Shown here: one piece after another, positions 2,065 to 33,075 of the stretch
Layout: each line of letters opens with the position of its first letter
Numbering within the stretch: position 1 is the stretch's first letter
Assembly: GCA_014237365.1 (NCBI GenBank)
Contig: JABZFQ010000368.1
Location: forward strand, 1 to 33,724
Direction of reading: 5' to 3'
DNA: 33,724 bases
Source: Desulfobacteraceae bacterium
GTDB taxonomy: Bacteria > Desulfobacterota > Desulfobacteria > Desulfobacterales > ETH-SRB1
Translations under genes and position numbers: made by a program
Notes under the pieces: model-generated
Told to the model about the DNA's origin: nothing
Databases searched by the model: none
The model's input: only the letters and a program-made list of their open reading frames with translations

Positions 2065-3239
2065 AGTATAAAAAAATAGAGTGTGAAGTTCTCGTTGTCG
2101 GTGGCGGTGTTGCAGGGATAGCTGCTTCTATCAAAGCGGCACGCGAAGGCGCAAGTACAGTTCTAATAGAAAAAAACAATTTCCCGGGAGGAACAGGAAT
2201 AACAGGTTTGCATCGTTTTATATGCGGATTATATGCCAATACAGAAGATATGCCTGATAAAATTCTTAATGAAGGAATTGCATCGGAAATATGTTCCATG
2301 CTGCAAGAGCTGGCCCCTGGAAAAATCCCGTTGCGTATGGGAAAGGTATATGTTCTGCCTTTTGCTACAAGCAACCTCATGTCAGTTCTCCGCTCATTGA
2401 GTGAAAAGGAAAAACAACTGGACATTTACTACAATACCGAAGCTGTCTCAGCCAAAACAGAAAATAATACTATTGTATCTGTAACCATCCAGAAGTTGAA
2501 TAAAAAATTCAATATTATTCCGCGCGTAGTTGTAGATTGCAGTGGTGACGGAGTTATTATTAAACTGAGTGGTGCACGATATAGAACAACTCCTCCTGAC
2601 CAGCACCAGCTCGCTGGTTATACATTCAGGGTAAATGGATTGAAGCATGTTGATGATATTCTGGCAGTGAAGGTACCATATTATTTAGCCAGGGCTGTAG
2701 AACAAAAAAAAATGCCCTTTTACCTTAAGTACACAACATTTACAGCCGGAGATACTGAAGATGAAGGATACTGCAAACTCAATATGCCTTCGGCAGGAAT
2801 AATGGAAAGGGAAAAGCAGGCCAAAAAGGATGCCCTGTCAGTGCACACTTATTTAGCCAAAGTTTTGCCTGTATTCAATGAGTCTTACATAGTAGAAATG
2901 TCGCCTGAAGTCCTTGATCGCGAGGGGCCCCGTCTCTACGGAAAATATACCCTCACTGCAGATGATGTTATTACTGCACGAAAATTTCCTGACGGGATAG
3001 TTAAAAATGCCTGGCCTATTGAGCTTTGGGACCAGCAAAAAGGAGTTCGATATCAATATCTCAAGCCTGGTGAAAATTACGAAATACCTCTGCGATGTCT
3101 GGTAACAAAAAATATTAAAAACCTTTTCTGTGCCGGCCGCTGTATCTCGGTTACCCATGAAGCATTGGGCTCCACAAGGGTTATTGGGACATGCATATCG
3201 TTAGGTGAAAAAGCTGGCCGCGAAGCCGCGCACCGGTGA
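2061..3239 (+). CDS. FAD-dependent oxidoreductase
   Basis: A 392-residue flavoprotein of the FAD_oxidored type. The N-terminal Rossmann motif reads VLVVGGGVAGIAASIKA, followed by the ribose-binding acid in LIEKNNFPGGTG. The C-terminal FAD motif NLFCAGRCIS plus EALGSTRVIGTC is typical of the family. It probably oxidises or desaturates a substrate in the cytoplasm. The start overlaps the previous gene by 4 bases and has GGAGAG just upstream. Its position between an acyltransferase and an adenylate-forming ligase suggests it acts on a carrier-bound or freshly acylated intermediate. This is inference; the substrate cannot be read from sequence. Family membership is firm. Confidence 0.85.
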   Translation: MKYKKIECEVLVVGGGVAGIAASIKAAREGASTVLIEKNNFPGGTGITGLHRFICGLYANTEDMPDKILNEGIASEICSMLQELAPGKIPLRMGKVYVLPFATSNLMSVLRSLSEKEKQLDIYYNTEAVSAKTENNTIVSVTIQKLNKKFNIIPRVVVDCSGDGVIIKLSGARYRTTPPDQHQLAGYTFRVNGLKHVDDILAVKVPYYLARAVEQKKMPFYLKYTTFTAGDTEDEGYCKLNMPSAGIMEREKQAKKDALSVHTYLAKVLPVFNESYIVEMSPEVLDREGPRLYGKYTLTADDVITARKFPDGIVKNAWPIELWDQQKGVRYQYLKPGENYEIPLRCLVTKNIKNLFCAGRCISVTHEALGSTRVIGTCISLGEKAGREAAHR

Positions 3240-3274: not shown

Positions 3275-3337
3275 TTAGGATTCGCCCAAAAATAAATTTA
3301 CATTTTGATGCGCCGATCCATCCCGCATGACTGCGTT
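3275..3337. repeat. Family B element, one-end fragment
   Basis: These 63 bases match the reverse complement of the right part of the full family B copy at 32912-33075, starting with TTAGGATTCGCCC and continuing through CCCGCATGACTGCGTT, then diverging abruptly. A 10-bp inverted repeat (CTGTTCGGT near 3259 and ACCGAACAG near 3342) flanks the fragment. It lies between the FAD oxidoreductase and the ligase. Confidence 0.8.
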
Positions 3338-3424
3338 CCTAACCGAACAGCTCCAACTTTTTGAGAAGTTACGGATTTGACAGAAAATGCTTTGAAATCG
3401 CCCCAAATTTTATAATAGCCAACA

Positions 3425-7695: not shown

Positions 7696-10600
7696 TTATA
7701 AAATATCTGCGTGATAATTTTGCAGGGACTTAACTTTAGACTGTCCTTTCCTTCGAGCAGCAATTCCCTTTGCAGCAGCAAGAGCGGCGGCTGTTGTCGT
7801 AATATTCAGGATTTTATAATTAATAGCTGCTTTACGAATATAAGAATTGTCTGTTTTGCACTGTTTCCCGCTCGGTGTGTTTATTACGAGCTGAATTTCT
7901 TTATTTTTAATTGCATCAACAAGGTTGGGTCTGCCATATCCCAGTTTTGGGACAGGTTTTGAATCTATCCCATGTTCTGTAAAGAATTGGTGAGTTCCTT
8001 TTGTTGCCAGTATGTTAAATCCAAGCTCCTTGAAGACCCTTGCAGCTTCCAGCGAACCTGGCTTGTCTTTCTCTGCAATGGTAAACAGAACCGTTCCTTC
8101 AATTGGCAGCGATAACTGTGTTGCTTCCTGTGATTTGAAGAATGCCAGGCCAAAGGAATCCGCCAGACCCAGAACTTCTCCTGTTGATCGCATCTCAGGA
8201 CCGAGAAGCGGATCTACTTCCGGGAACATGTTGAACGGGAAAACCGCTTCTTTTACTCCGAAATGTTTGATCTGTTTTTGTTTAAGACCAAGATCTGAAA
8301 TTGTTTTACCAAGCAAAATCTGTGTGGAAAGCCGCGCCATGGAGATATTACAGACCTTTGAAACTATTGGCACGGTACGCGACGCTCTTGGGTTTGCCTC
8401 AAGAATGTAAACTGTGTCATTGACTATAGCATACTGGATATTCATAAGCCCGATGACATTTAACTCGATAGCGATTTTACGTGTGTATTCGCAGATAGTT
8501 TCAATGTGTTTGGGCGGAATGCTGATGGGCGGAATTACGCATGCAGAGTCACCTGAATGCACGCCTGCAAGCTCGATATGTTCCATAACAGCAGGAACAA
8601 ATGCGTCAGTTCCGTCTGAAATTGCATCTGCTTCAGCTTCAATGGCATTTTCAAGGAACCTGTCAATTAAAATGGGCCGCTGAGGTGAAATATCTACTGC
8701 TGCTGCCATATAATGTTTGAGCATTTCTTCGTCATGTATAACTTCCATCCCGCGTCCCCCCAGAACATAAGAAGGGCGAACTATAAGAGGATAACCGATA
8801 TCTTTTGCAATATCCAAAGCTTCCTTAAATGAATGAGCCATGCCGGATTTGGGCCTGGGAATCCCCAGCTTTCGCATCATTTTGTAGAAACGATCACGGT
8901 CTTCCGCAAGATCTATGGCTTCAGGAGATGTGCCGAGTATCTTTACACCAGCTTCAGCCAGATCGTTTGCAATGTTCAGCGGTGTTTGCCCTCCATACTG
9001 TACAATTACTCCTTCAGGCTTTTCCTTTTCGTAAATACTTAATACGTCTTCTACTGTAAGAGGTTCAAAATACAGTTTATCCGAAGTGTCGTAGTCTGTG
9101 GAGACGGTTTCAGGATTGCAGTTGACCATTATGGATTCATATCCTGCATCGCGGATGGCAAAAGCCGCATGCACACAGCAATAGTCAAATTCAATTCCCT
9201 GTCCAATCCGGTTTGGCCCGCCGCCGAGAACCATAATCTTCTTACGGTCGCTTACTTTTACTTTATCGGATGCATTATAGGTAGAGTAGTAATAAGCTGC
9301 ATCTTCTTCGACGCCACTTACCGGAACAGGTTCCCATGCCTCGAGTAGATTCAATGAAATGCGTTTTTCACGGATATCCTTTTCGGGAATGTCAAGAAGC
9401 CTGGCAAGATACTTATCTGCAAATCCATCTTTTTTAGCCTGCAAAAGCAGATCATCCGGAAGCATTCGGCCTTTGTGCTCTAAAATTTTATCTTCAAGTT
9501 CTACCAACTCTTTCATTTGTTCGATAAACCAGGCTTTTATGTGAGTTTTTTCATAAAGAGCCCGGATATCTGCGCCTTTGCGCAGCGCCTCGTACATGAT
9601 GAAGTGTCGTTCACTGGTAGGAATGTTCAGCATATGCATTAATTCGTTCAATGATTTATTGTTGAAGTCTTTGGCAAATCCAAGCCCATACCGGTTAATT
9701 TCCAGCGAACGTATAGCTTTTTGAAAAGCTTCTTTATAATTTTTTCCTATGCTCATTACTTCACCAACTGCGCGCATCTGAGTGCCGAGCTTATCTTCCA
9801 CGCCTGGAAATTTTTCAAAGGCCCACCTTGCAAATTTAACTACAACATAATCACCGGATGGAGTATATTTTTCCAGGGTTCCATCCCGCCAGTAGGGAAT
9901 TTCATCAAGAGTAAGGCCTCCAGCCAGAAGCGCTGAAATAAGAGCGATCGGAAAACCGGTTGCCTTTGACGCCAGCGCTGACGAGCGAGAAGTCCTGGGA
10001 TTGATTTCTATAACCACAACTTTTCCAGTTTTGGGATCATGTGCGAATTGAATATTAGTGCCTCCGATGACTTCTATTGCCTCAACAATATCATAGGAGT
10101 ATTTCTGAAGACGTTGCTGAAGTTCAGGAGCGATTGTCATCATTGGCGCTGTGCAGAATGAATCCCCTGTATGAATGCCCATTGCGTCGACATTTTCTAT
10201 GAAACATACCGTGATCATCTGATTTTTGGAATCACGGACAACTTCCAGTTCAAGTTCTTCCCAGCCCAGCACAGATTCTTCGACCAGAATCTGATTTGCC
10301 ATACTTGCAGCAATGCCTCGAGCGGCTATTGTACGAAGTTCTTCGACATTGTAAACAAGACCGCCTCCTGTTCCTCCCATGGTGTATGCCGGACGTATTA
10401 CAACAGGGTAACCAAGTTTTTCCGCAACTTTTTCCGCATCCGAAATGCTGTTAACAGCCTGATTGTCTGGCATTTCAATGCCGAGTCGATTCATGGTTTC
10501 CTTAAATGCTGTACGGTCTTCCCCGCGCTCAATCGCATCAATATTAACTCCGATGACCTTAACGCCGTATTTTTCAAGAACGCCCGATTTTGCCAGCTCG

Positions 10601-15915: not shown

Positions 15916-16230
15916 ATATATTATTTCCTTTAATCTTTCCCAAATTTCTACTTTCCAATTTCCAGTTTCAAGCCGTGAACGGCAAAGTTTAAGATAGGTT
16001 GTCAATTTTTCGATTAAAAATCAAGCCCTGACGTATGATTATGCACAGTCAAGCTATCCAAGGATTTATGAAGAAAGGAAATATTTTTTATCGCATGCTT
16101 AAAAGATAGTTATTTACTTAGTTGTGGACGTTCGCAAGTCCCCGTCCCGCAAGTCTCCGCAAGTCCCTCGGCATGTAATGCGAATAACATATCCCCGGCA
16201 TGAACTCCCTCCCTTATATTCAGCTTACTT
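15916..16230. other. Gene-free spacer with short direct repeats
   Basis: No coding region is convincing here. The 8-base word CGCAAGTC occurs at 16133, 16148 and 16158. The remainder is AT-rich with no recognisable element. Confidence 0.5.
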
Positions 16231-16398: not shown

Positions 16399-16408
16399 TT
16401 ACACCTGG

Positions 16409-16738
16409 TTATATCCCAATGTCATTGATTGGAATTCCATCCTTTTTTATTTCCCAGACCAGAGGATCATCTTCAATAAAACTGCCTGGCGTAAATGGAA
16501 TCGGTTCAATGCGGTTATCAATTTGCCCTGCAATCCTGGCCAGTTTTATTCCTTCCTCAAAACGGTCCTCAGAAAAATCAGATGATATAACGGCCACATC
16601 TATATCGCTAAACTTGCTGCTCATGCGCTTTGCATATGAACCAAAAAGATAAGCAGAATCAACAGACACACCGCTTTCCTTTAATTTAAATAGAAACATT
16701 TTAACTTTCTTAACGATCAAATCATTGATTTCAGCCAT
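16409..16738 (-). CDS. MNT-type minimal nucleotidyltransferase (antitoxin-like)
   Basis: A 109-residue protein with the minimal nucleotidyltransferase signature: LFGSYAKRMSSKFSDIDVAV, in which Gly33-Ser34 and Asp45/Asp47 form the GS-x10-DxD metal and nucleotide site. In characterised HEPN-MNT systems the MNT partner AMPylates and silences a HEPN ribonuclease. The HEPN gene lies directly upstream on the same strand, but the two are now split by a family A element. The ATG has AAGGA nine bases upstream, located at the repeat junction. The catalytic residues are intact, so the enzyme may still be active. Confidence 0.85.
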   Translation of the reverse strand: MAEINDLIVKKVKMFLFKLKESGVSVDSAYLFGSYAKRMSSKFSDIDVAVISSDFSEDRFEEGIKLARIAGQIDNRIEPIPFTPGSFIEDDPLVWEIKKDGIPINDIGI

Positions 16739-16751
16739 TTAAAAATATCCT

Positions 16752-16937
16752 TTAGGAACGTGGACGAAATAACTTCCCCAACTATGCATCACAGCTTCAG
16801 GCCGCCTTTGTCCGATCTCAAATTCCAAAACTATTGAAATAGCTCGCTATTCTATCAACTTTTGTGATCTGAGATCAAACAAATTCGACCCAAATCTGTG
16901 CGCCTACTTGGGGAAGTTATTTCGTCCACGTTCCTTA
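16752..16937. repeat. Family A palindromic element, copy 5 (full length, inside HEPN gene end)
   Basis: Full length with TTAGGAACGTGGACG at the left and CGTCCACGTTCCTTA at the right, in the same orientation as copy 1. It sits at the 3' end of the HEPN gene: the reading frame runs into the element and stops inside its inner arm. Confidence 0.9.
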
Positions 16938-17310
16938 TCTTCTTAAGTTCATTTTCAGTAAATTCTTTTGTGCATTTTTTTCTAAAGCTTCTTTTTTGAT
17001 CAGGGTATCGCGATTCCAAGTTGAACCTTGTGATTGTTATCAACTTTTCTGTTTGGTCATCAGTTAATTTTATATCCAGTATTTCCGCAAGTCTTTGCAG
17101 ATTGTGGATATAAGGAGCATGTTCCCCTTTTTTTAATACAAACAATCCTTTTAACAGTTTTTCAATTGCAAGATGACCGAAAAATAAGGAATAAGAGTAA
17201 TCATTTTTCTCATAAAAATGATCGGCAACGTTCAGCGCTTCTAATGCTTCTTCAAGCCAGTATTCTTTAATTTCTTGAACATTGATTTTCTTTTTTTCAT
17301 CGTTACTCAT
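16855..17310 (-). CDS. HEPN-domain protein with repeat-encoded C-terminus
   Basis: A HEPN-fold helical protein, the usual partner of MNT nucleotidyltransferases: EALEALNVADHFYEKNDYSY, then FFGHLAIEKLLKGLFV, HAPYIHNL and SRYPDQKRSF. About 125 residues are native. After LKKI, the last 26 or so residues are translated from the family A element (RNVDEITSPSRRTDLG, ending SDHKS), so the native C-terminal helix is lost. No clear RxxxxH ribonuclease motif is visible in what remains; HAPYIHNL is the nearest His-rich part. I prefer the second of two adjacent ATGs (17310) because GAGAGG is better spaced. It may be a functional truncated protein or a decaying gene. Confidence 0.75.
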   Translation of the reverse strand: MSNDEKKKINVQEIKEYWLEEALEALNVADHFYEKNDYSYSLFFGHLAIEKLLKGLFVLKKGEHAPYIHNLQRLAEILDIKLTDDQTEKLITITRFNLESRYPDQKRSFRKKCTKEFTENELKKIRNVDEITSPSRRTDLGRICLISDHKS

Positions 17311-17393
17311 CATAACCTCTCAATATCAGTATATGTTTCAAGTAAAGTTACTATTACCTAACTTGAGCAATTTTTAGCTCGCTCTGCAGTGAT

Positions 17394-17411
17394 CTCTTTA
17401 TTTATAAAGAG
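17394..17411. terminator. Hairpin after the three-Cys-motif gene
   Basis: CTCTTTA and TAAAGAG form a perfect 7-bp stem with a 4-nt loop, downstream of the operon ending at 17506 on the minus strand and before the HEPN gene. There is no U-tract, so its role as a terminator is uncertain. Confidence 0.35.
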
Positions 17412-17505
17412 TCAAACGTAGACATTGACCCGTTGCCGACCCAGAAAGAAACTTTTTGTCAAGAGTGCAGACGCGACCCATCAATCCCTTCCCAATCTGC
17501 CTCAT

Positions 17506-18225
17506 TTATGAGTAAGCATAAACAGGCATTTCATCCCATGTTTTATTTAAAAGAATCCGGCCTTTTTTCTTCTTACGCACACCGCCCCATTGTTTAAAAA
17601 AGAACGGAACATTGTATTTTACGCATTGTCTTTTTATTTCAAGTACCCATTCTTCCTTCATTGGTCTTGCTCCAGGACCGGATTCTCCGCCAACAATAAC
17701 CCAATCTATTCCTTTAAGATTAATTTTTCCAATATTCCCGATTAATGGCTCAAATGATAAAAATTTTACGTTTGCTTTTGCTTTTCGTAAATCGTCTATT
17801 CTGAATTTATAATCTCCATTTTCAACAGTTACTCCCATCCAGATATGTTTTGACCATGGGATTTCCGAATTTAGCTCAAGCATTCTCTCGGATCGTTTAG
17901 TTAATATTTGGTATAAGTGCCAGTCTGCTTTATTCATTACATCAAACAATTTAAATATAAATGCTTTAGGAACTAATTCGTGAAAAATGTCACTCATGGA
18001 ATTTACGAAGATGGTTTGAGGTTTTTTCCATTTCAATGGCAGCTCAGTTGTATGTGGGTGAGTAGTTATTTTAAAGCCGTTACGATAATTTGCTTGCCCC
18101 ATAGCTTTTAATCTTTTAGCCATTCTTTCGGCATAGCAGTTTTTACATCCTGGGCTTATTTTAGAACAGCCAGTAATGGGGTTCCAGGTAGATTCTGTCC
18201 ATTCAATAGATGATTTTTTTGACAT
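17506..18225 (-). CDS. Three-Cys-motif protein, phage Gp37/Gp68 (DUF5131) family
   Basis: A 239-residue member of the Gp37/Gp68 family. The N-terminal motif SIEWTESTWNPITGC then SPGCKNCYAERMAKR gives Cys20, Cys27 and Cys30 (C-x6-C-x2-C), reminiscent of radical SAM cluster ligation, with FLSFEPLIG and WVIVGGESGPGARPM downstream. The biochemical role is not established to my knowledge; it regularly neighbours TcmP, as here, where the genes are only 2 bases apart. The start has GAGGT eight bases upstream. It is the last gene of a four-gene minus-strand operon led by a PLD-helicase and a DNA methyltransferase. It could act in nucleic-acid modification; that is inference. Confidence 0.88.
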   Translation of the reverse strand: MSKKSSIEWTESTWNPITGCSKISPGCKNCYAERMAKRLKAMGQANYRNGFKITTHPHTTELPLKWKKPQTIFVNSMSDIFHELVPKAFIFKLFDVMNKADWHLYQILTKRSERMLELNSEIPWSKHIWMGVTVENGDYKFRIDDLRKAKANVKFLSFEPLIGNIGKINLKGIDWVIVGGESGPGARPMKEEWVLEIKRQCVKYNVPFFFKQWGGVRKKKKGRILLNKTWDEMPVYAYS

Positions 18226-18227
18226 TA

Positions 18228-19112
18228 TTACCTCTTTAAAATATCCTGTGCAATTTTTATTGCGGTTTTTGCGCCTCTTGGACTACCCGATGCAAAACAC
18301 AGCAAATATAATGGATTATTTTTTGAATTGCGGAGTAATAAAGGATTTTTAGCAACACCGGCGAATATAGATTTAAGTCTTTTTACAATAAATTTGCTTA
18401 TTTTATTAAAATCAGTGTCTTTAACTGTTTTTGTTTCACTAGCAAACAACGTTGTCTCTTGGGTTTCGCTATAAAAAGCCTCTTTCCATTCATTTGTTCC
18501 AAAAATGCTATCTAACTTTGCTTCCCACGAAGCAGGCATTTTACCGGCATCTTTTTGAAGAAGTCTATTCACACCAATACCAAAAGGGAAAAGATACCAT
18601 AAATCTATAGCTTCTGTGTTTGCAATGGCTTTGATTGTTTCCCAATTAACCTGCATTCCATAGGGATCAAGAAATAATACAGCGCGGTTATATTGCCACT
18701 TATAATTGTTACAGAGGTCTATTATCCAACTATTTGCATCTGTGTTGATTAAATCAATCTTTTTCTCTTTGTTTTTGAATTCCTCTTTTAGTTTCAGTAA
18801 TTCTGTAAAATGTTTTCTCGATTTTTCAATAAAGATATATTTGTCAAATTCCGGTTTAATCTCCAAAGCAATTCGGGCAGAGCCTTTTGAATATGTTTCA
18901 ATCTCTTTTATATCATTTTGTTGGAACATGAATATTTGGTCATCAGTTTTATTCTTTTTTTCTTCTATGTATCCAGTACCGGCAAAGGCATCAATATAAG
19001 CAAACCGAAAGTTTTGCTTATTCATAATGGTAGCATAAGCTTTCAGGTATTTTTCTACCCGTTTGAGTTTTTCTTCTGTCCAGTTACCTCCGAATCCATG
19101 TGTTTCTGTCAT
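18228..19112 (-). CDS. tcmP: Three-Cys-motif partner protein TcmP
   Basis: A 294-residue protein recognised as TcmP from its start (THGFGGNWTEEKL) and its neighbour, the three-Cys-motif protein. It reads like a class I methyltransferase fold: motif I YIDAFAGTGY with Asp41, an acid in KYIFIEKS near residue 97, INTDANSW near 123, and a motif-IV-like DPYGMQ at 149-154. In N6-adenine and related enzymes the DPPY/NPPY loop occupies this place, so a nucleic-acid methyltransferase is plausible. The start overlaps the upstream methyltransferase stop by 4 bases (ATGA), indicating coupled translation. No target is known to me. Complete length. Confidence 0.88.
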   Translation of the reverse strand: MTETHGFGGNWTEEKLKRVEKYLKAYATIMNKQNFRFAYIDAFAGTGYIEEKKNKTDDQIFMFQQNDIKEIETYSKGSARIALEIKPEFDKYIFIEKSRKHFTELLKLKEEFKNKEKKIDLINTDANSWIIDLCNNYKWQYNRAVLFLDPYGMQVNWETIKAIANTEAIDLWYLFPFGIGVNRLLQKDAGKMPASWEAKLDSIFGTNEWKEAFYSETQETTLFASETKTVKDTDFNKISKFIVKRLKSIFAGVAKNPLLLRNSKNNPLYLLCFASGSPRGAKTAIKIAQDILKR

Positions 19113-22100
19113 TTGGATTTTTCGCCCTCCACAATTTTGATTTCTTCCGGGGTTAGGTCATAGAGTTTATAGATAAGTTGATCAATTTCGGTTTCTATGG
19201 CTGAAACGTTAGCTTTCGGATTTTCCTTCTTCATCGCCAATATTTTCTCCACCCGCTCTTCAATATCGAACCGGTCTTTTGTAGTGGGCGGCAATTTTAC
19301 GGGTATCAGAGCCAAGGGCTTGTTGAAGTATTCTCGTGCATCGCCTTTTGGTTTGCCAATAAATCCGTAAAACCAATCCAAAAGAGTCGAGTTCAATAAA
19401 GCGAGTACGTATTTGCAGGAGAATCTCTTGTCGGTTATGACTATAGCCCTAATATCACCCCCGTCGTTGAAGTATTGTTCATTATCATAGGCAAAACGAT
19501 TGGATGGCGCTCTGTAAGGGACAACTATCTTTTCCGACGCGTCAAAGATGTGTTTTTTCCGCGGCCTTTCAAACCTGTACCAAGGATATAGTCCTTTCTT
19601 AACTTCATTACGGGCAGAAAGCTCGCTCTCATGCAATATCAGGTAGGCATGCGCATTTGGAAATTGTTCGATCTGTATTTCATTATTGGTGTAGATCAAC
19701 CAGCTTTGTCTGTTATGTAAAAAATAACGCTCAATATCACTGTTTTTTAAATTACGTCGCAAAAGAGGTCTTTCAATTTTTAATTTCTCGGCGACTTCAC
19801 CTTGGAGAGTAAACACCGTGTTCCGTCCTGACGTAGATCCCTTCTCTATCTCCGCTATATTTCTGAGCAACAGCGCCCTTTTATGCAACTTTTCGATCAA
19901 AGCATTATCATTGTCACCAGCAATTAACCATTTCTCGTTAAGCTGCGTTCTTTGAATTGATACATGTCGCAAGACAGCTTCAAGCATGGCACTAGAATCA
20001 GTATGATCGTTACCGCTCTCGTAAAAGTGCACTGTGTCGTTGGTCGGGCGAGCCTGTAGGAATGTTATGCAAGTATGAACGCTGGCTTCTGAAAAAACTT
20101 GGTGCTCTTTGAAATTAAGAACTTTCGAGACATGCGGAACAAGCTCCACCCGAAGTTTTTGAGCATACTCATTACCGAGGTAATAGTTTGATGTAATTAG
20201 AGCAGATATTCCATTCGACGAAAGTTGCTTAAGACTCAGATAGATGAAGTAATAAACAATGTCATTATATCCTGTGTGAATTTTCTTGTATTTCTTTTTT
20301 AGATAGCCAACAATTTCCTTATCCACATTGCTGAGATTAAAATACGGCGGATTACCGATGACAACATCAAATCCGCCTTTCTTGTGAAAAACTTCAGAAA
20401 AATAAACCTCAAAATCAAACTCTGTATGTCCGTTCGTAATCGCACGAATTAGTTCATCAATCTGCTTCTTATATTCCTGTTTTTTGGTGGGGTTGGTTTC
20501 ATTGAAAAATAGTGGTTTCAGTTTTTCCAGTTCATTGAAGAGATTAAAGTTAAACAGATTTTTTTCAACTCCAAGCAGAGAATTCCCGCATACGATTTTA
20601 TAGTCCAGATTCGGCAGGGGCTTGATATTCTTGATATCATCCTCATCCACTACAAGCGAAAGCCACAACCGCAGTTTGGCAATTTCTACCGCGCCCGGGT
20701 CAATGTCCACACCGTAAAGGGAGTGTTCAATGCAGCGGCGTTTGAAGTCATAGGTTTTTCTATTTTTATCATTTAGAAAAACGGACAGCACATTTCTGGC
20801 TTTTACAATCTCGCTCATCATGCCTACAGGGAAGGCGCCGGAACCAACTGCCGGGTCGCATACCGTGATTTCCGCAAGTTTATCATCAATCAGTTTTGCG
20901 TTTTTTCTGATGCTGTCAGGCAGTATCGATTTTATACTGGTAGTCTTTTGCTCCCCTTTTTTAATCTTTTGTTCTTTTTCTAAAAAAATTGCTTCGTTTT
21001 CGCTGAACTGTTCGCCGGTGTGTATCAGCTTTTCAATATCTTTTTTAGGAATAATAGGCTTATATGAATCCAAAGTAAGAGTTTGTTGCACAGGACTTTG
21101 AGGCCCAAATATTTTCTTTTGAACAGCCGGTTTTGTAATGATTGATTCTTTATGAGTGTTAACTGCTGTATCAAGATAATTAATCAAACTCTGCTGACAC
21201 ATGTAGTGAACAATTTCGCGAGGGGTGTAATAGACACCGAACTTTTTGTTGAATTTGTTTTCTTCTCCTTTTTTGCCGCTTTTTAATGCTTTTTTAAATT
21301 CAGCATAATTATCCGGGCGGATAGCATTAAATTTTTCATAGGATTTTCCCAAAAGCTCCGGGTCGATGGCCACTTCCTTTTCAAGCGGCTCATCTTCTTT
21401 AACGGTAAAATTGTAGCGGTCAAACACATCCAGTATGCCTGTTCCTTTATCACCTTCTTTGGTTTTTACATTATTGGAAAAGAGCTTGTCAGGAATAATT
21501 ATATCAATATGCACCCAGTCGTAATTGCCGATGGGATCAAAAAGACCGCCGTTCAGGAAAGGTATTTTGCAGTTAAAACGGCTGTAGTAACCATCGTCAT
21601 GGCTCCGGTCATTACGTAAGGCGTCATAAAAGAGCGGCTCCAGAATATCATTGAAGAAATTGTTATAATCTCCATGTGTTTTCCCAAACAGTTCCCGTAA
21701 AAAATGCTTTGAGCCTGTACCCCAGTCATCATCGCGGCCCACGCCGAACCAGCCTTTTTTCTGCAAAAAATAGAGGAATATAATCTGGCCCAGTAGTTTT
21801 TTGGCAAAATTTACAGTATCAACACCTTTGGCTTCAAATTCATTCCTCAGGCTGGAAGGCTGAGTTACTATCTTATCCAGCTCTTCTTTGGTGTGCAGGA
21901 AAAGCTCGCGGTATTTGAGGAAAAATTCTTTGGTGACGGTTTCAATGTCAAAGGCTTGTTCAATTTCTTTCAGGGTCGGGTCATGTTTGTCATTTGCCAG
22001 GATACTGACAAGCTGGCTTTGTGCGGTGTGGCTTTTTTCATTGGTGCCTACAAGGAACGACCAGCGCCGGGCAGGGGTAAATTCTTTTTTGACCTTCACT

Positions 22101-22519
22101 TTTTCGCCGGAGGTATCCAGCCGGTAATCCATTTTAACAATGGAAAATCTCCAGTCTTCGCTATCAGGCGAGACAAAAGCGGCCAGTGCAGCATCTTTTA
22201 AAATGTCACCACGACTTCCGTTTAGATACCAGGCTATAAAATTCCTCTGCATTGTGCGGGCGCGTTCAAGAGAAGTCTCTTTTTTAAGCTGGACAATCAA
22301 AAGATCAATTCTGTTTCCTTCTCTATCTTCGTATTTTCCTATGCGTTCAAGAGTGCGAATATATGGTTTGTAGGCATCCGGAATAAAATTGCCACGGTAG
22401 ATAAACGGCGCAGCCTCAATATGATCAAGCATATTGCTGACAAGACAAGCAAATTTCCTTTTATCAAAAGGATTTTCTAAAGTATCTCGAATCAAGCTGA
22501 TTGCGGATATTTTATCCAA
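19109..22519 (-). CDS. Eco57I-like N6-adenine DNA methyltransferase (type IIG/PglX-like)
   Basis: A 1136-residue protein. The SAM-binding motif I is VCDPAVGSGAFPVG (555-563 core) and the catalytic motif IV is IGNPPY (723-726), the arrangement of N6-adenine methyltransferases. The region KFGVYYTPREIVHYM before motif I is typical of the Eco57I group. After about residue 880 a TaqI-like target-recognition domain is suggested by LLRRNLKNSDIERYF and VPYRAPSNRF. The N-terminus has a degenerate PD-(D/E)xK-like stretch, IDLLIVQLKKE, with Gln77 where a catalytic acid is expected, so cleavage by this subunit alone is doubtful. It overlaps the helicase gene by 8 bases and tcmP by 4. It probably marks self DNA in a restriction or defence system with the adjacent helicase. 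Confidence 0.88.
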   Translation of the reverse strand: MDKISAISLIRDTLENPFDKRKFACLVSNMLDHIEAAPFIYRGNFIPDAYKPYIRTLERIGKYEDREGNRIDLLIVQLKKETSLERARTMQRNFIAWYLNGSRGDILKDAALAAFVSPDSEDWRFSIVKMDYRLDTSGEKVKVKKEFTPARRWSFLVGTNEKSHTAQSQLVSILANDKHDPTLKEIEQAFDIETVTKEFFLKYRELFLHTKEELDKIVTQPSSLRNEFEAKGVDTVNFAKKLLGQIIFLYFLQKKGWFGVGRDDDWGTGSKHFLRELFGKTHGDYNNFFNDILEPLFYDALRNDRSHDDGYYSRFNCKIPFLNGGLFDPIGNYDWVHIDIIIPDKLFSNNVKTKEGDKGTGILDVFDRYNFTVKEDEPLEKEVAIDPELLGKSYEKFNAIRPDNYAEFKKALKSGKKGEENKFNKKFGVYYTPREIVHYMCQQSLINYLDTAVNTHKESIITKPAVQKKIFGPQSPVQQTLTLDSYKPIIPKKDIEKLIHTGEQFSENEAIFLEKEQKIKKGEQKTTSIKSILPDSIRKNAKLIDDKLAEITVCDPAVGSGAFPVGMMSEIVKARNVLSVFLNDKNRKTYDFKRRCIEHSLYGVDIDPGAVEIAKLRLWLSLVVDEDDIKNIKPLPNLDYKIVCGNSLLGVEKNLFNFNLFNELEKLKPLFFNETNPTKKQEYKKQIDELIRAITNGHTEFDFEVYFSEVFHKKGGFDVVIGNPPYFNLSNVDKEIVGYLKKKYKKIHTGYNDIVYYFIYLSLKQLSSNGISALITSNYYLGNEYAQKLRVELVPHVSKVLNFKEHQVFSEASVHTCITFLQARPTNDTVHFYESGNDHTDSSAMLEAVLRHVSIQRTQLNEKWLIAGDNDNALIEKLHKRALLLRNIAEIEKGSTSGRNTVFTLQGEVAEKLKIERPLLRRNLKNSDIERYFLHNRQSWLIYTNNEIQIEQFPNAHAYLILHESELSARNEVKKGLYPWYRFERPRKKHIFDASEKIVVPYRAPSNRFAYDNEQYFNDGGDIRAIVITDKRFSCKYVLALLNSTLLDWFYGFIGKPKGDAREYFNKPLALIPVKLPPTTKDRFDIEERVEKILAMKKENPKANVSAIETEIDQLIYKLYDLTPEEIKIVEGEKSK

Positions 22520-25500
22520 GTTCGTCCCCTCCGGTTAAAAATTCAGACAATATGACTTCCCTTTTTGATGATATAATTAGCTGGTCCGGTCTTTCCACGC
22601 TCAGGATATTATAGGGGATATTTTTCTTCAGTATCGCAAGAACTTTAAGCGGATTGATTTCTTTTTCGATCTTTTTCTTGATTCCTTTAGTGGTATTCTT
22701 TGGAATCACGCCGTATTCGTATCCTTTCAGAACCAGTCTGACGTAGTCCTCATCATCATCTGTAAAGCCCTGGTATCTTCTAAATTCATTCGCCTTTAAA
22801 CGCATGATTACATAACGTTCATTGGAAAGTCCGCCCTTGCCACCTGATCTTCCGGTCTCCATCACATCACCTGATGTTATTAAATAAAACCGTGTCTTGT
22901 TTCTGTCCAGCATCGTATAGTATTGTTTTGGAATTTTCCGTCGTGGTGTGTCGGGCTCACATTTAAAAATATCCGCAGCCTCAAAAAACGTAAGCTCTCT
23001 GGAACTTTTGCCGCCGGAAATAAAAAATTTTTTCAACTTGCCCTTTCTAAAAAATGTAAGCAACAGATCGGATTCTGCATCATTGTCTCTGGCAGAGCGA
23101 GCCTTTTTAGGGAGCAATTTGATCTTTTGAAAAAGTTCGGGTTGGCCGTCTCTGATATCCCGGATGAACTTGAGATATTCCAGCTCAGAATGCTTTTCCT
23201 CATCATCGCCCTGATACGTTTTTTTGCTTGTGAGTCGCTTATATAAGCTATCACCAAAAAGTTCATGAGATGATACAATCTCTTCTTCTGTAAGATATCT
23301 TGCATCTTCGCCCAGCGTGTCGTGAAACGCCTGGATCTTGGCTTTGATGTTATCTTCAAGACCAATATGCCTGTCCGACTGCTCCGTCGGAAAAAAGTTA
23401 AATACATAGATGCTTTTGTGTTCAGTGCCGACGCGGTTCACCCGCCCTACCCTTTGAAGCACTTTTGTCGGATTCCACGGCAGATCGTAATTGATGATAA
23501 TATTGGAACGGTGCAGGTTGATGCCTTCCGCGAGTATATCCGTGCTGATCAGGATGCGCAGTTCATCATTCCGGATTTTGCATGTTGGGTCGTAATTTCC
23601 CTTTATCAAATCCCTTGCAACAGAGACAGGCTTTCTGCCATCAGATAACAGACCTCCATTGCTGGAATAGAACAAGACTTTATCCGAAAAATGTCTGTTC
23701 AGATTTTCAAACAAATAATCGCCTGTTTCCTTTGATTCCGTGAAGATAATGATCTTTTTGTCTTTGAGTTCTTTATCGGTTTTCAGGTCATGAATAAATG
23801 TTGTTAGCTTAGGATCTGAATCTACCACTGCCCATAGATCCCGAATGGCTTGAAGTGATTTAAGATCTGCATTCAGATATTCTATTAATTCCGGCTTAAA
23901 TTCATCGGTATTATATCTTTCAAGCTTTTCCTGCTCTATGAGCTGAAGTATTTTTTCTTCATTGTCTTCATCCAGGAGATCATAAACATCCACTTTTTTG
24001 CTGATAAGGATCGTTCCCTTATTGAACATATCAATGAAATTAACATAGGATTCAACAAAGCGTTCCAATGTCTTGCGGAAGGCATAGAAGCTGCTTTCAA
24101 GGCGTTTAACTATAATGACCTTCATAAAACCGCCGACATTTCGCTGGCTTTGCTTTTCAAATTCAGGAAGTTCCTTTTTCAGGTAGAGAAGAGGCGTGTA
24201 GCGTGCGTATTTAATTTTTTTCAGCAAATCTATGGTTTGACCAAAAATAGCGCTTATATGTTCATCAAACTGGTAAATGAATCTCCTCGGATCTTCGATT
24301 TCAGGAAAAAACAGACCCTGTTCATCAATATCATTGCCAAAATATTTGGTAACCTCGGCTCGTGTTCGTCTAACCATGATGTATTTAAGTATATTCTCAC
24401 GGATCTCCTTTGATCCTTCCTGTATGATTCCCATATATGCCGAATCGGATTTATTAATGCCTTTGAGTTTATGCTCTAATCTTTTAAAAAACTTTTCAAG
24501 GTTCGGCACTCCGGGGATGGTGGATTTCTTGGGAATTTGAAAAAGTTTCAACTGGCTGAGAATATCATCAAAAGTATTATTTAGCGGTGTGGCTGAAACC
24601 AGTATAACCTTTTTGCCAAAACAGATCTGATGTATGCTTTCAAAACTTTGCGTGTATTCATTCCTGAAACGGTGGGCTTCATCTATGAAGATATAGTCAT
24701 ATTTATCCGCCCCATCTTTTATTACTTGATCAAGTTTTCCAAGGGATTCTAACCTGAATTTTTGAATCCCAAATTCAAAAAATGTTTCTTCCCAGTAATC
24801 CTTCAGGACGGGCGGGCAGATTATCAGTTTACTGCCGGGCAATTGTTGAGCCAAAAGCGCAGAGATATAAGTTTTACCCAAACCCACAACATCGGCCAGA
24901 AATACACCGTTGTAAGCATCCAGGATTTTCCTGGCGGAGACGACCGCCTGCTTTTGATACTTCAGCTCCATAAAGCCTTCTGGAAGGTATAGATCAATTT
25001 CCTCATCAAGATTGATGTCTTCCTTCAGGTATTCATAGATCATTTTAAGATAGAGGTGATAGGGTGTGATAGTGTCATTGAGCCAGGTTTTATTCTGGAT
25101 AGTTTCGACGTATTCCTGCGAGATGTTTACACCGTCTTTCCATAGCGTTTCAAATTGGTTTAATGCAAAATCAACATCAACCTTGTTCTTTAATTCGACG
25201 TTGAATTCCCTATTAGCGACAAGTCCGCTTTCGGAAAAATTGCTGGAACCTGTGATTACCCTGCCAAAATCCAATTCTCCTTCTTTGAAACGGCTGATAT
25301 AAACCTTGGCGTGGATGTTTTCACTGGGATAAGCGCGAAGCTCCATCTTTTTTCCATTGCCGCCGTTGGCTATGTCTTGTTCTTTGTTTAGACAGTCAGC
25401 GGCAAGAAATTCTATAAATTTTCTAATGCCGATTTCGGTTTTATAGGAGTCCTCAGATCCATCCATCTCGGATGCTGTATGGTCACTGAATATATGTTTT

Positions 25501-25763
25501 GTTCTGCTGTGGGATTCAAAATCAAATTCTCCCCTGGATCGCACTGATTCAATAATGTCATATGCTTTCCGATCAATATTCAACCCGACTAAAATTCTGA
25601 TTTTGTCAATGGATTCGAAAGATTCGCATAATTGATGAAAGCCGCTGGTACGGAAATATCCGACCAATACATCAAAGTATTGAACATGCTCCAGGGTCTT
25701 TTTGAATCGATCAAGCAATGCATAGCCTGGTTCATTTGTAAAAAAGGTTGTATCGGTAATCAT
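22512..25763 (-). CDS. PLD-nuclease-like plus SNF2/DEAH helicase fusion
   Basis: A 1083-residue fusion, first gene of the operon. The N-terminal phospholipase-D-like domain shows HAKVYI (His151, Lys153) and GSSNFSESGL (172 on); the Asp of a full HxK(x)4D is not obvious. A superfamily 2 helicase follows: Walker A ADVVGLGKT (to 298), DEAH at 361-364, SATPLNN from 390, and C-terminal motifs STDILAEGINL and LQRVGRVNRVG (770-777 core). It probably translocates on DNA and may cleave it. I choose ATG at 25763, which has ACAGGAAA about 8 bases upstream; a longer in-frame reading from 25889 begins inside family A copy 6. The domain set recalls DISARM (PLD, SNF2 and methylase as separate genes), but no DUF1998 gene is present. 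Confidence 0.87.
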   Translation of the reverse strand: MITDTTFFTNEPGYALLDRFKKTLEHVQYFDVLVGYFRTSGFHQLCESFESIDKIRILVGLNIDRKAYDIIESVRSRGEFDFESHSRTKHIFSDHTASEMDGSEDSYKTEIGIRKFIEFLAADCLNKEQDIANGGNGKKMELRAYPSENIHAKVYISRFKEGELDFGRVITGSSNFSESGLVANREFNVELKNKVDVDFALNQFETLWKDGVNISQEYVETIQNKTWLNDTITPYHLYLKMIYEYLKEDINLDEEIDLYLPEGFMELKYQKQAVVSARKILDAYNGVFLADVVGLGKTYISALLAQQLPGSKLIICPPVLKDYWEETFFEFGIQKFRLESLGKLDQVIKDGADKYDYIFIDEAHRFRNEYTQSFESIHQICFGKKVILVSATPLNNTFDDILSQLKLFQIPKKSTIPGVPNLEKFFKRLEHKLKGINKSDSAYMGIIQEGSKEIRENILKYIMVRRTRAEVTKYFGNDIDEQGLFFPEIEDPRRFIYQFDEHISAIFGQTIDLLKKIKYARYTPLLYLKKELPEFEKQSQRNVGGFMKVIIVKRLESSFYAFRKTLERFVESYVNFIDMFNKGTILISKKVDVYDLLDEDNEEKILQLIEQEKLERYNTDEFKPELIEYLNADLKSLQAIRDLWAVVDSDPKLTTFIHDLKTDKELKDKKIIIFTESKETGDYLFENLNRHFSDKVLFYSSNGGLLSDGRKPVSVARDLIKGNYDPTCKIRNDELRILISTDILAEGINLHRSNIIINYDLPWNPTKVLQRVGRVNRVGTEHKSIYVFNFFPTEQSDRHIGLEDNIKAKIQAFHDTLGEDARYLTEEEIVSSHELFGDSLYKRLTSKKTYQGDDEEKHSELEYLKFIRDIRDGQPELFQKIKLLPKKARSARDNDAESDLLLTFFRKGKLKKFFISGGKSSRELTFFEAADIFKCEPDTPRRKIPKQYYTMLDRNKTRFYLITSGDVMETGRSGGKGGLSNERYVIMRLKANEFRRYQGFTDDDEDYVRLVLKGYEYGVIPKNTTKGIKKKIEKEINPLKVLAILKKNIPYNILSVERPDQLIISSKREVILSEFLTGGDELG

Positions 25764-25867
25764 CTGACAGTTTCCTGTTATATTAAGTAGTGCGTGACCG
25801 AAAACTCCGAAATATGGTTTTTCAATTTTGTTTAGAGATTTCCAACTCTCTGAGATTTCTTTCTTTT

Positions 25868-25944
25868 TTTGTGATTTGAGATCAAACAAATTTGACCCAA
25901 ATCTATGCGCCTACTTGGGGAAATTATTTCGTCCCTATTCCTAA
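25868..25944. repeat. Family A element, copy 6 (right arm only)
   Basis: TTTTGTGATTTGAGATC through GCGCCTACTTGGGG to ATTCCTAA is the complete right arm without the left arm. It lies about 105 bases upstream of the helicase start and, with copy 5, brackets the 8.9-kb HEPN-to-helicase segment. Confidence 0.85.
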
Positions 25945-30020: not shown

Positions 30021-30208
30021 TAAGGGAACGTGGACGAAATAACTTCCCCAACTATGCATCACAGCTTCAGGACGCCTTTGTTCGATCTCAAACCCCAAAA
30101 ATATCAAAATAGATAGGCTATTCCATCAACTTTTGTTACTTGAGATCGAACAAATCTGACCTAAATCTATGCGCCTACTTGTGGAAGTTATTTCGTCACC
30201 GTTCCTAA
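30021..30208. repeat. Family A palindromic element, copy 8 (full length)
   Basis: Full length, + orientation, TAAGGGAACGTGGACG to CGTCACCGTTCCTAA. It fills the gap between the convergent ClC and truA genes. The truA stop TAG is formed across its right end. Confidence 0.9.
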
Positions 30209-30945
30209 TATTTGACGTTCATTAAAAAAAGACCGTGCGGGGGCGCTGTAGCTCCGGCTTTATTGCGGTCCATGGAAAGAAGTATTTGCTTGAAGTCATC
30301 AGGTATGATTTTGCGAAGTCCTACATCTACAAGAGTACCAACAATATTGCGTACCATATGCTTTAAAAAACCATCTGCTTCTATTTCAATATAAAGATAT
30401 TGATCATTTTTTTCCTTAATCTTTGCATCAATAATATTTCTTGTCGTATGTGCCCTTGGGCTTCCTGTTCCTTCAAATGCCTTAAAATCATGCATGCCTA
30501 TTATATAAGAAATTGATAATAGCATAGCATGTAAATCAAGTTTTTTCCGAATAAACCATGCATACTGCCTGCCAATAGCAGCAGGTGTATGGCAATTTAA
30601 TATCCGGTAGCTGTAAATTTTGCTTTTTACATCATATCGGGCATGAAATTGTTCATCAACCTCCTTAAATTCCTTTATAATAATATCATCCGGCAGGAGG
30701 CTATTTAACCCTCTATAGAATTCTTTTGGCAACAAATTTGTATCGCAATGAAAGCCGGCTGCCTGGCCAAAAGCGTGAACCCCGGCGTCAGTTCTGCCTG
30801 AGCCTGTCAGGCTAACTTTATTACCTGTCATTCTCATTAAAACTTTTTCAATTTCTCCCTGAATTGTACGCAGATTTTTCTGCCTCTGCCAGCCATGATA
30901 GGAACTGCCGTCATATTCTATTATTAATTTAAAGTTTTTAGGCAT
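30205..30945 (-). CDS. truA: tRNA pseudouridine synthase A
   Basis: A 246-residue TruA, which converts U38-U40 in the tRNA anticodon stem-loop to pseudouridine. The catalytic motif is GSGRTDAGVHAFGQ with Asp53. The N-terminal KLIIEYDGSSYHGWQRQ and the C-terminal FLKHMVRNIVGTLVDVG are family hallmarks, and the length is normal. I choose ATG at 30945; an in-frame extension of eight codons upstream lies entirely in family A sequence. That ATG itself falls at the inner boundary of a family A end (AACTATGC, as in intact copies), and no ribosome-binding site is visible, so translation may depend on coupling to the upstream gene, whose stop is 30 bases away. The stop codon also overlaps a family A end. 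Confidence 0.95.
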   Translation of the reverse strand: MPKNFKLIIEYDGSSYHGWQRQKNLRTIQGEIEKVLMRMTGNKVSLTGSGRTDAGVHAFGQAAGFHCDTNLLPKEFYRGLNSLLPDDIIIKEFKEVDEQFHARYDVKSKIYSYRILNCHTPAAIGRQYAWFIRKKLDLHAMLLSISYIIGMHDFKAFEGTGSPRAHTTRNIIDAKIKEKNDQYLYIEIEADGFLKHMVRNIVGTLVDVGLRKIIPDDFKQILLSMDRNKAGATAPPHGLFLMNVKY

Positions 30946-30977
30946 AGTTGTGGAAGTTGTTTCGTCCACGTTTCTTA
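30942..30977. repeat. Family A fragment, copy 9 (one end, between PrmA-like gene and truA)
   Basis: Reading the minus strand: TAAGAAACGTGGACGAAAC, then AACTTCCACAACTATGC, matching the outer left end of family A with few changes. The first TAA is the stop of the PrmA-like gene and the last ATG is the truA start. Confidence 0.75.
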
Positions 30978-32911: not shown

Positions 32912-33075
32912 TTAGGATTCGCCCAAAAATAAATTTACATTTTGAGGTGTCGAGGCGCTCGCATGACAAGGCGCGAGGAGGGCGAATAGCGAGGGCTATT
33001 TAACCGACGAGCAACGCAGTCATGCGGGATGGATCGGCGCATCAAAATGTAAATTTATTTTTGGGCGAATCCTTA
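32912..33075. repeat. Family B palindromic element, full copy (164 bp)
   Basis: TTAGGATTCGCCC at the left, running about 33 bases to CATTTTGA, is mirrored exactly at the right by TCAAAATG to GGGCGAATCCTTA. The GC-richer centre contains partly mirrored CGAGGCGCTCGCATGAC and GCAGTCATGCGGG with GCGAGGGCTATTT between. A fragment of the same family is at 3275-3337. It lies just upstream of the RNA ligase start. Confidence 0.88.

What the first reader, a model, noticed from the sequence alone, without database searches (positions are those of the whole stretch)
16855..16940. HEPN gene now ends inside a mobile hairpin
After LKKI the HEPN reading frame continues in frame for about 26 codons through the family A right arm and stops at TGA in the inner block. 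The native C-terminus is replaced by element-encoded sequence and the HEPN-MNT operon is split by 116 bases. The toxin may be disabled while the antitoxin stays intact.
Basis: partly seen in the sequence, partly recalled or inferred. Interest (0 to 1): 0.5.

Follow-up and report, generated by a model that had tools for sequence, protein, structure and literature searches.

The report
Mobile hairpin inside a toxin gene
A short mobile hairpin repeat, common in this bacterium's genome, has landed near the end of one gene of a likely toxin-antitoxin pair, so the toxin-like protein loses its normal tail and gains one coded by the repeat.

Summary
A 180-bp near-palindromic MITE-like element (core 16755-16934, TTA duplicated on each side) sits inside the HEPN gene, 11 codons before its ancestral stop. 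A 97%-identical HEPN from another genus of the family is uninterrupted here (L034), as is a decayed relative (L074). The native last 11 residues, with a Trp kept in 29 of 30 aligned homologues, are replaced by 26 element-coded residues and a TGA. The usual HEPN-MNT gene overlap (42 of 52 placed loci) becomes a 116-nt gap. MNT's frame, start and Shine-Dalgarno-like site are intact. AlphaFold2 ends the last helix at residue 127 instead of 134, with a low-confidence tail. A disabled toxin is plausible but untested; neither this HEPN nor its intact relative has the classical Rx4-6H motif in native sequence. The element has 658 exact termini in this genome, occurs in 8 of 8 genomes of the genus searched, and puts the same kind of tail on PanC, LipA and a LysM-type protein. 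A second, decayed HEPN in this genome carries a copy almost at the same spot. It is a well-documented new case of a known kind: a bacterial MITE fused to reading frames.

The parts
16855..17313 (-). HEPN ORF as it now reads (152 aa, TGA at 16857-16855)
   Evidence: the ORF listing; PF05168 3.4e-18, profile 2-110 of 117
16936..17313 (-). native HEPN codons 1-126
   Evidence: aligned to intact L034 HEPN: 97% aa identity, 96% DNA
16858..16935 (-). 26 element-coded codons that replace the native C-terminus
   Evidence: among 78 HEPN rows only in the window's own
16755..16934 (.). 180-bp near-palindromic MITE-like element core GGAACG...CGTTCC
   Evidence: boundary from the empty site and from 38 full copies
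16752..16754 (.). target-site duplication TTA, left copy
   Evidence: (TAA once, L034 2204-2206)
16935..16937 (.). target-site duplication TTA, right copy
16717..16752 (-). orphaned native HEPN C-terminal codons K-D-I-F-K-W-L-K-S-M-I-stop, beyond the element and overlapping the MNT start
   Evidence: far side translated on its own; matches L034
16409..16738 (-). MNT (minimal nucleotidyltransferase) gene, 109 aa, intact frame; AAGGA just upstream
   Evidence: PF18765 2.7e-9, PF01909 8.9e-8; MntA_antitoxin model 34.3 bits, under its cut-off of 60

Best explanation
A non-autonomous palindromic transposable element (MITE type, 180 bp, 3-bp TWA target duplication), amplified in this genus, inserted into the 3' end of the HEPN gene of a HEPN-MNT module that was probably shared horizontally. 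Shown by sequence: the insertion point, the duplication, the loss of the last 11 residues, the new 26-residue tail, the loss of the HEPN/MNT gene overlap, and the intact MNT frame. Inferred: the new HEPN lacks the second half of its last helix, including a near-invariant Trp, and is most likely destabilised or weakened, in its own activity or in MNT binding. MNT is probably still made from its own Shine-Dalgarno-like site, but no longer by overlap coupling. The cell can tolerate this because the antitoxin gene survives, so the locus is probably an early stage of toxin decay rather than a new function.
For: Empty site in L034 with TAA once and the same uninterrupted end in L074. Of 38 full copies, 33 have TWA on both sides, and 31 of these have identical triplets (18 TTA, 13 TAA), Fisher p 1.8e-7. 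658 termini vs control 0; exact termini in 8 of 8 genomes of the genus, 2 of 7 and 0 of 2 of the two other genera of the family. G013, which holds the empty site, has no element match. Trp column: W in 29 of 30 homologues, I in the window. AF2: native last helix 116-134, block pLDDT 96-98; window helix ends at 127, later blocks 55, 50, 47. MNT overlap in 42 of 52 placed loci. Precedent: truncated HEPN in HEPN-NT pairs of Sulfolobus islandicus (passages of PMC3718332).
Against: Function is untested. The tail may be harmless: PanC and LipA carry the same kind of tail, though against their nearest relative they lose only 2 and 5 residues at variable ends. HEPN codons 1-126 show no other lesion (12 synonymous and 4 non-synonymous base changes against L034; MNT has 10 and 12). 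The Pfam score barely falls (69.1 to 66.3 bits). The toxin role of this PF05168 subfamily is a prediction. PMC3710099 says MNT almost always comes first in such pairs, whereas here HEPN does. The window model was built with homologues whose native ends align to the tail columns, so the low tail confidence is expected and proves little about the core.
Confidence: 0.72

Rival explanations
1. The insertion is functionally neutral: the tail is tolerated, HEPN keeps its activity, and MNT keeps pace from its own ribosome-binding site.
For: Same kind of tail on PanC (296 aa, Pantoate_ligase 9.6e-101) and LipA; no further lesion in HEPN; predicted openness of the MNT Shine-Dalgarno-like site higher than in L034 in two of three contexts (0.73 vs 0.51, 0.66 vs 0.55).
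Against: Here the insert removes a conserved half-helix with a Trp found in 29 of 30 homologues, not a variable end; the common gene overlap is lost. In the shortest context the Shine-Dalgarno-like site is less open (0.47 vs 0.57), and the AUG is less open in two of three contexts.
Confidence: 0.2
2. The HEPN-element-MNT join is an assembly artefact at a high-copy repeat in a fragmented assembly.
For: 382 contigs and 658 element termini.
Against: Both flanks are the two parts of one cassette, in order, orientation and exact register, with a single 3-bp duplication; a chance misjoin would not do this.
Confidence: 0.02
3. The insertion is selected: the element-coded tail or the hairpin gives a useful change, such as a weaker toxin with a still-active antitoxin that protects against related HEPN modules.
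For: A second HEPN-MNT pair in the genome (C156) has an element copy almost at the same place; the MNT frame is open here.
Against: The C156 pair looks decayed (frameshift in HEPN, no ATG, GTG or TTG seen at the MNT start), which fits relaxed selection better; termini are so many (658) that hits near gene ends can recur by chance.
Confidence: 0.06

Closest known systems
Bacterial MITEs fused in frame with genes (ERIC, YPAL, Correia/NEMIS 107-bp form; review PMC2229807, passages)
   Same: Small (100-200 bp) palindromic non-autonomous repeat, stable stem-loop RNA, fused to or co-translated with genes; most have a target duplication
   Different: 3-bp TWA duplication, hundreds of copies; in the HEPN frame it gives a stop after 26 codons instead of reading through. 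Sequence was not compared with those elements
Rickettsia palindromic elements (RPE; passages of PMC10969869 and PMC2229807)
   Same: Palindromic repeat that adds a similar peptide to unrelated proteins
   Different: RPE are reported as in-frame fusions; here the insert keeps the frame (183 bp = 61 codons) but carries stops, so the native end is lost
HEPN-MNT type VII toxin-antitoxin modules (Shewanella MntA/HepT; Legionella HEPN-MNT, passages of PMC11586414)
   Same: HEPN gene beside a short MNT (109 aa here, about 108 in Legionella); overlapping genes in relatives, as in Legionella (8 bp)
   Different: HEPN here belongs to PF05168; the only solved structure found by sequence is 1ufb; by fold 1ufb and 2hsb lead and the HepT structures rank 12th and lower, E 0.45 and weaker

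Membership tests
MITE (miniature inverted-repeat transposable element) | short length, terminal inverted repeats, no transposase gene | tested here: met
   180 bp, too short for a transposase gene; arms 16754-16787/16902-16935 94% complementary
MITE (miniature inverted-repeat transposable element) | target-site duplication | tested here: met
   31 of 33 TWA-flanked copies identical on both sides; 5 of all 38 copies have other or missing flanks
MITE (miniature inverted-repeat transposable element) | proof of movement: filled and empty site | tested here: met
   L034 and L074 against the window
MITE (miniature inverted-repeat transposable element) | related autonomous element that supplies the transposase | tested here: inconclusive
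   Only two families were searched: 3 DDE_Tnp_1 and 11 Y1_Tnp places in the genome; the 14 loci were compared with the element and I recognised no transposase gene bounded by its termini
Rickettsia palindromic element-like coding palindrome | same peptide added to unrelated proteins | tested here: met
   HEPN, PanC, LipA, LysM-type protein, with small differences in the peptide
Rickettsia palindromic element-like coding palindrome | frame open through the whole element | tested here: not met
   Four in-frame stops in this copy, the first after 26 codons
HEPN-MNT toxin-antitoxin module | HEPN domain gene next to a minimal nucleotidyltransferase gene | tested here: met
HEPN-MNT toxin-antitoxin module | Rx4-6H RNase motif in HEPN | tested here: not met
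   None in the native part of the window protein or in L034; the one match in the window lies in the element tail. 22 of 30 homologues have none; 8 have a string of that form at residues 21-72, not in the RYP region. PMC3710099 notes D in place of H in several PF05168 proteins, with another conserved H; H70 and R102 are invariant in 31 rows
HEPN-MNT toxin-antitoxin module | HEPN toxicity neutralised by MNT | not testable with these tools
   needs expression tests

The most novel reading that the evidence does not exclude
The element is a portable C-terminal tail with a stop codon: in this genome it has placed much the same 26-residue peptide on several unrelated proteins, among them enzymes that look essential, and on the HEPN of a toxin-antitoxin pair it has produced a weakened toxin with a live antitoxin, so that the locus now acts as an anti-addiction or modulating module.
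Probability: 0.1. Interest if true: 0.6.

Novelty: new member of a known kind. Interest (0 to 1): 0.36.

Why it matters
It is a clean natural case, with empty sites, of a miniature transposable element rewriting the end of a toxin-like gene and separating it from its antitoxin gene. The same kind of tail on PanC, LipA and a LysM-type protein makes it possible to ask how often protein ends come from mobile hairpins, and whether such tails are tolerated.

Tried and rejected
Autonomous partner: searched DDE_Tnp_1 and Y1_Tnp in the own genome (no other transposase family) and compared the 14 loci with the element. A Y1 gene in L122 lies beside a part-copy (core positions 1-108, ending at 1418), but the unit that L122 shares with L121 (96% identical) begins at 1423, so I read it as nested, not as the parent. 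I set aside a Y1/REP origin because of the 3-bp duplication; that Y1 transposases leave none is recalled, not looked up.

Rfam: no family in the window at gathering score. Terminator-like site in 16400-17420: none found; two promoter-like sites, against a mean of 3.2 in shuffles. A hidden ribosome-binding site is not clearly supported (mixed results given under the neutral rival).

Hot spot at HEPN-MNT junctions: two of the three HEPN places found in the genome carry a copy near the HEPN end, but the case is post hoc and one pair looks decayed; left as a remark.

Papers: in the listings of the seven searches (5 to 15 rows each) I saw no report of a MITE ending a HEPN toxin gene. Only listings and abstract starts were seen, except for passages of PMC3710099, PMC11586414, PMC10969869, PMC3718332 and PMC2229807. 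The original RPE papers were not seen (the one asked for is not held).

Full report
What is there. On the minus strand a HEPN gene (17313-16855; PF05168, 3.4e-18) is followed by a minimal nucleotidyltransferase gene, MNT (16738-16409; PF18765 and PF01909). After codon 126 the HEPN frame enters a repeat and reads 26 more codons to a stop; 116 bases separate that stop from the MNT start.

The repeat. It is a 180-bp near-palindrome (16755-16934) with ends GGAACG...CGTTCC. As RNA it folds at -112.9 kcal/mol (z -14.7; 0 of 200 shuffles as good). Among 38 distinct full copies read from 30 fetched loci and the window, 33 have TTA or TAA on both sides, and 31 of these have the same triplet on both (Fisher p 1.8e-7). 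The sample is made of the best hits and their neighbours, not a random draw; 5 of the 38 have other or missing flanks. A 26-nt terminus pattern occurs 658 times in the 3.49-Mb genome, its reversed control 0 times. In the 17 genomes of the family it occurs in 8 of 8 of the same genus (658, 150, 48, 38, 27, 7, 3 and 1 termini), 2 of 7 of a second genus (2 and 1) and 0 of 2 of a third; one genome of the third, G008, has a weak 33-base match to the element.

The empty site. A scan of genome contigs gave L034 (Desulfobacteraceae MAG SB_S3_bin18), 97% identical over residues 1-124; G013 holds the same HEPN at the same contig position, and the two HEPN sequences are identical. Its DNA matches the window at 96% (410 of 427) up to the element and at 94% (328 of 350) after it, the two matches sharing only TAA. 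Its HEPN is 137 aa and ends KDIFKWLKSMI; the MNT start overlaps the HEPN end by 22 nt. L074 (Eth-SRB1), a decayed copy with a deletion in HEPN and a broken MNT, has the same uninterrupted end. G013 shows no match to the element. The CarB protein is 84% identical between the two genomes, against 97% for HEPN, which suggests that the pair moved between genera (inference); the element then landed in one line.

What changed in HEPN. The native last 11 residues are still encoded beyond the element (16752-16717), in the same frame because the insert is 183 bp, but behind four in-frame stops. Of 78 HEPN rows (75 distinct; 63 of the 78 reach residue 119 of the query or later), only the window's own shows the tail; the decayed C156 HEPN, whose row stops early, reads into an element copy too. 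In an alignment of 31 proteins the column of the Trp of KWL has W in 29 of the 30 homologues (R in L072) and I in the window. AlphaFold2 gives the intact relative a last helix 116-134 at high confidence (mean pLDDT 93.6); the window protein's helix stops at 127, and the rest falls to block means of 55, 50 and 47 with only short helices of low confidence. The homologues' native ends align to the tail columns, so this low confidence is partly built in. Against a severe effect: the Pfam score falls only from 69.1 to 66.3 bits, and codons 1-126 carry no further lesion (12 synonymous, 4 non-synonymous base changes; MNT 10 and 12).

What changed in the operon. Of 76 loci given to a script, 55 could be placed; without the window's own locus and two duplicates 52 remain. 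In 42 of these the MNT start overlaps the HEPN end by 4-49 nt; in 5 there is a gap, in 2 no start was found, in 3 no MNT. In the window this overlap is gone. The MNT frame, ATG and the AAGGA before it remain. Folding gives no clear hidden ribosome site: the site is unpaired 0.73, 0.66 and 0.47 in three contexts of the filled locus and 0.51, 0.55 and 0.57 in L034; the AUG 0.36, 0.45, 0.49 and 0.47, 0.63, 0.46. No terminator-like site is found. Loss of coupling is therefore an inference.

Is HEPN a toxin here? Neither the native part of the window protein nor L034 has Rx4-6H; 8 of 30 homologues have a string of that form elsewhere, at residues 21-72. PMC3710099 (passages) says that several PF05168 proteins have D in place of H and another conserved H that may serve; H70 and R102 are invariant in 31 rows. 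It also says MNT almost always comes first, which is not so in these loci. The only solved structure found by sequence is 1ufb (3.7e-5); by fold 1ufb and 2hsb lead, with the studied HepT structures from rank 12 down. The toxin role is a prediction. A hairpin-ended HEPN beside an open MNT frame recalls the truncated HEPN genes reported in S. islandicus HEPN-NT pairs (passages of PMC3718332).

The wider pattern. Much the same tail ends other proteins of this genome: PanC (L140; five relatives end 0-3 residues after the point where the tail starts, a sixth genome had no match), LipA (L023; four relatives go on there for 5-17 residues of their own, others searched matched only in part or not at all) and a LysM-type protein (L141, weak LysM hit 1.8e-4), whose frame runs further into the element. 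In the 38 copies, 8 sides have an open frame of at least 70 codons reaching the element, 4 of which pass its edge, HEPN and LipA among them; these frames include unproven ORFs. A second HEPN-MNT pair (C156, L028) has a copy about three codons upstream of the corresponding place, with a frameshift in HEPN and no ATG, GTG or TTG seen at the MNT start.

Verdict. The functional claim, a disabled toxin beside an intact antitoxin, is the likeliest reading but untested. The thing is a new member of a known kind: a bacterial MITE fused to reading frames.

Noticed in passing
L028 (G000:C156, about 9635-10123): Second HEPN-MNT pair in the same genome with a copy of the same element near the HEPN end; HEPN frameshifted, MNT without a normal start codon in view.
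   Followed up: partly
L140:256-1143 (+), L023:524-1465 (-), L141:549-2471 (+): PanC, LipA and a LysM-type protein end in much the same element-coded tail as HEPN.
   Followed up: partly
22512-25889 (-) and 30205-30969 (-): A helicase-like ORF (TTG start at 25889) and a TruA-like ORF (name from its sequence, recalled; GTG start at 30969) are listed as starting inside partial element copies; the second also stops at the edge of a full copy. The element may supply starts too, or the starts are miscalled.
   Followed up: no
17506-25889 (-): Defence-like cluster beside the HEPN-MNT pair: PADLOC hits to PDC-M41B/M30B, PDC-M41A, a type IIG restriction-methylase (1148.7 bits) and a helicase.
   Followed up: no
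L074 (Eth-SRB1), 2454-3161: Decayed copy of the same HEPN-MNT pair: deletion in HEPN, broken MNT, no element at the site.
   Followed up: partly
15929-15981: 53 bases 92% identical to a stretch upstream of HEPN in L034, in a different relative place.
   Followed up: no
3277-3340 and 33010-33073: 64-nt inverted pair, 98% complementary, 29.7 kb apart; a different repeat.
   Followed up: no
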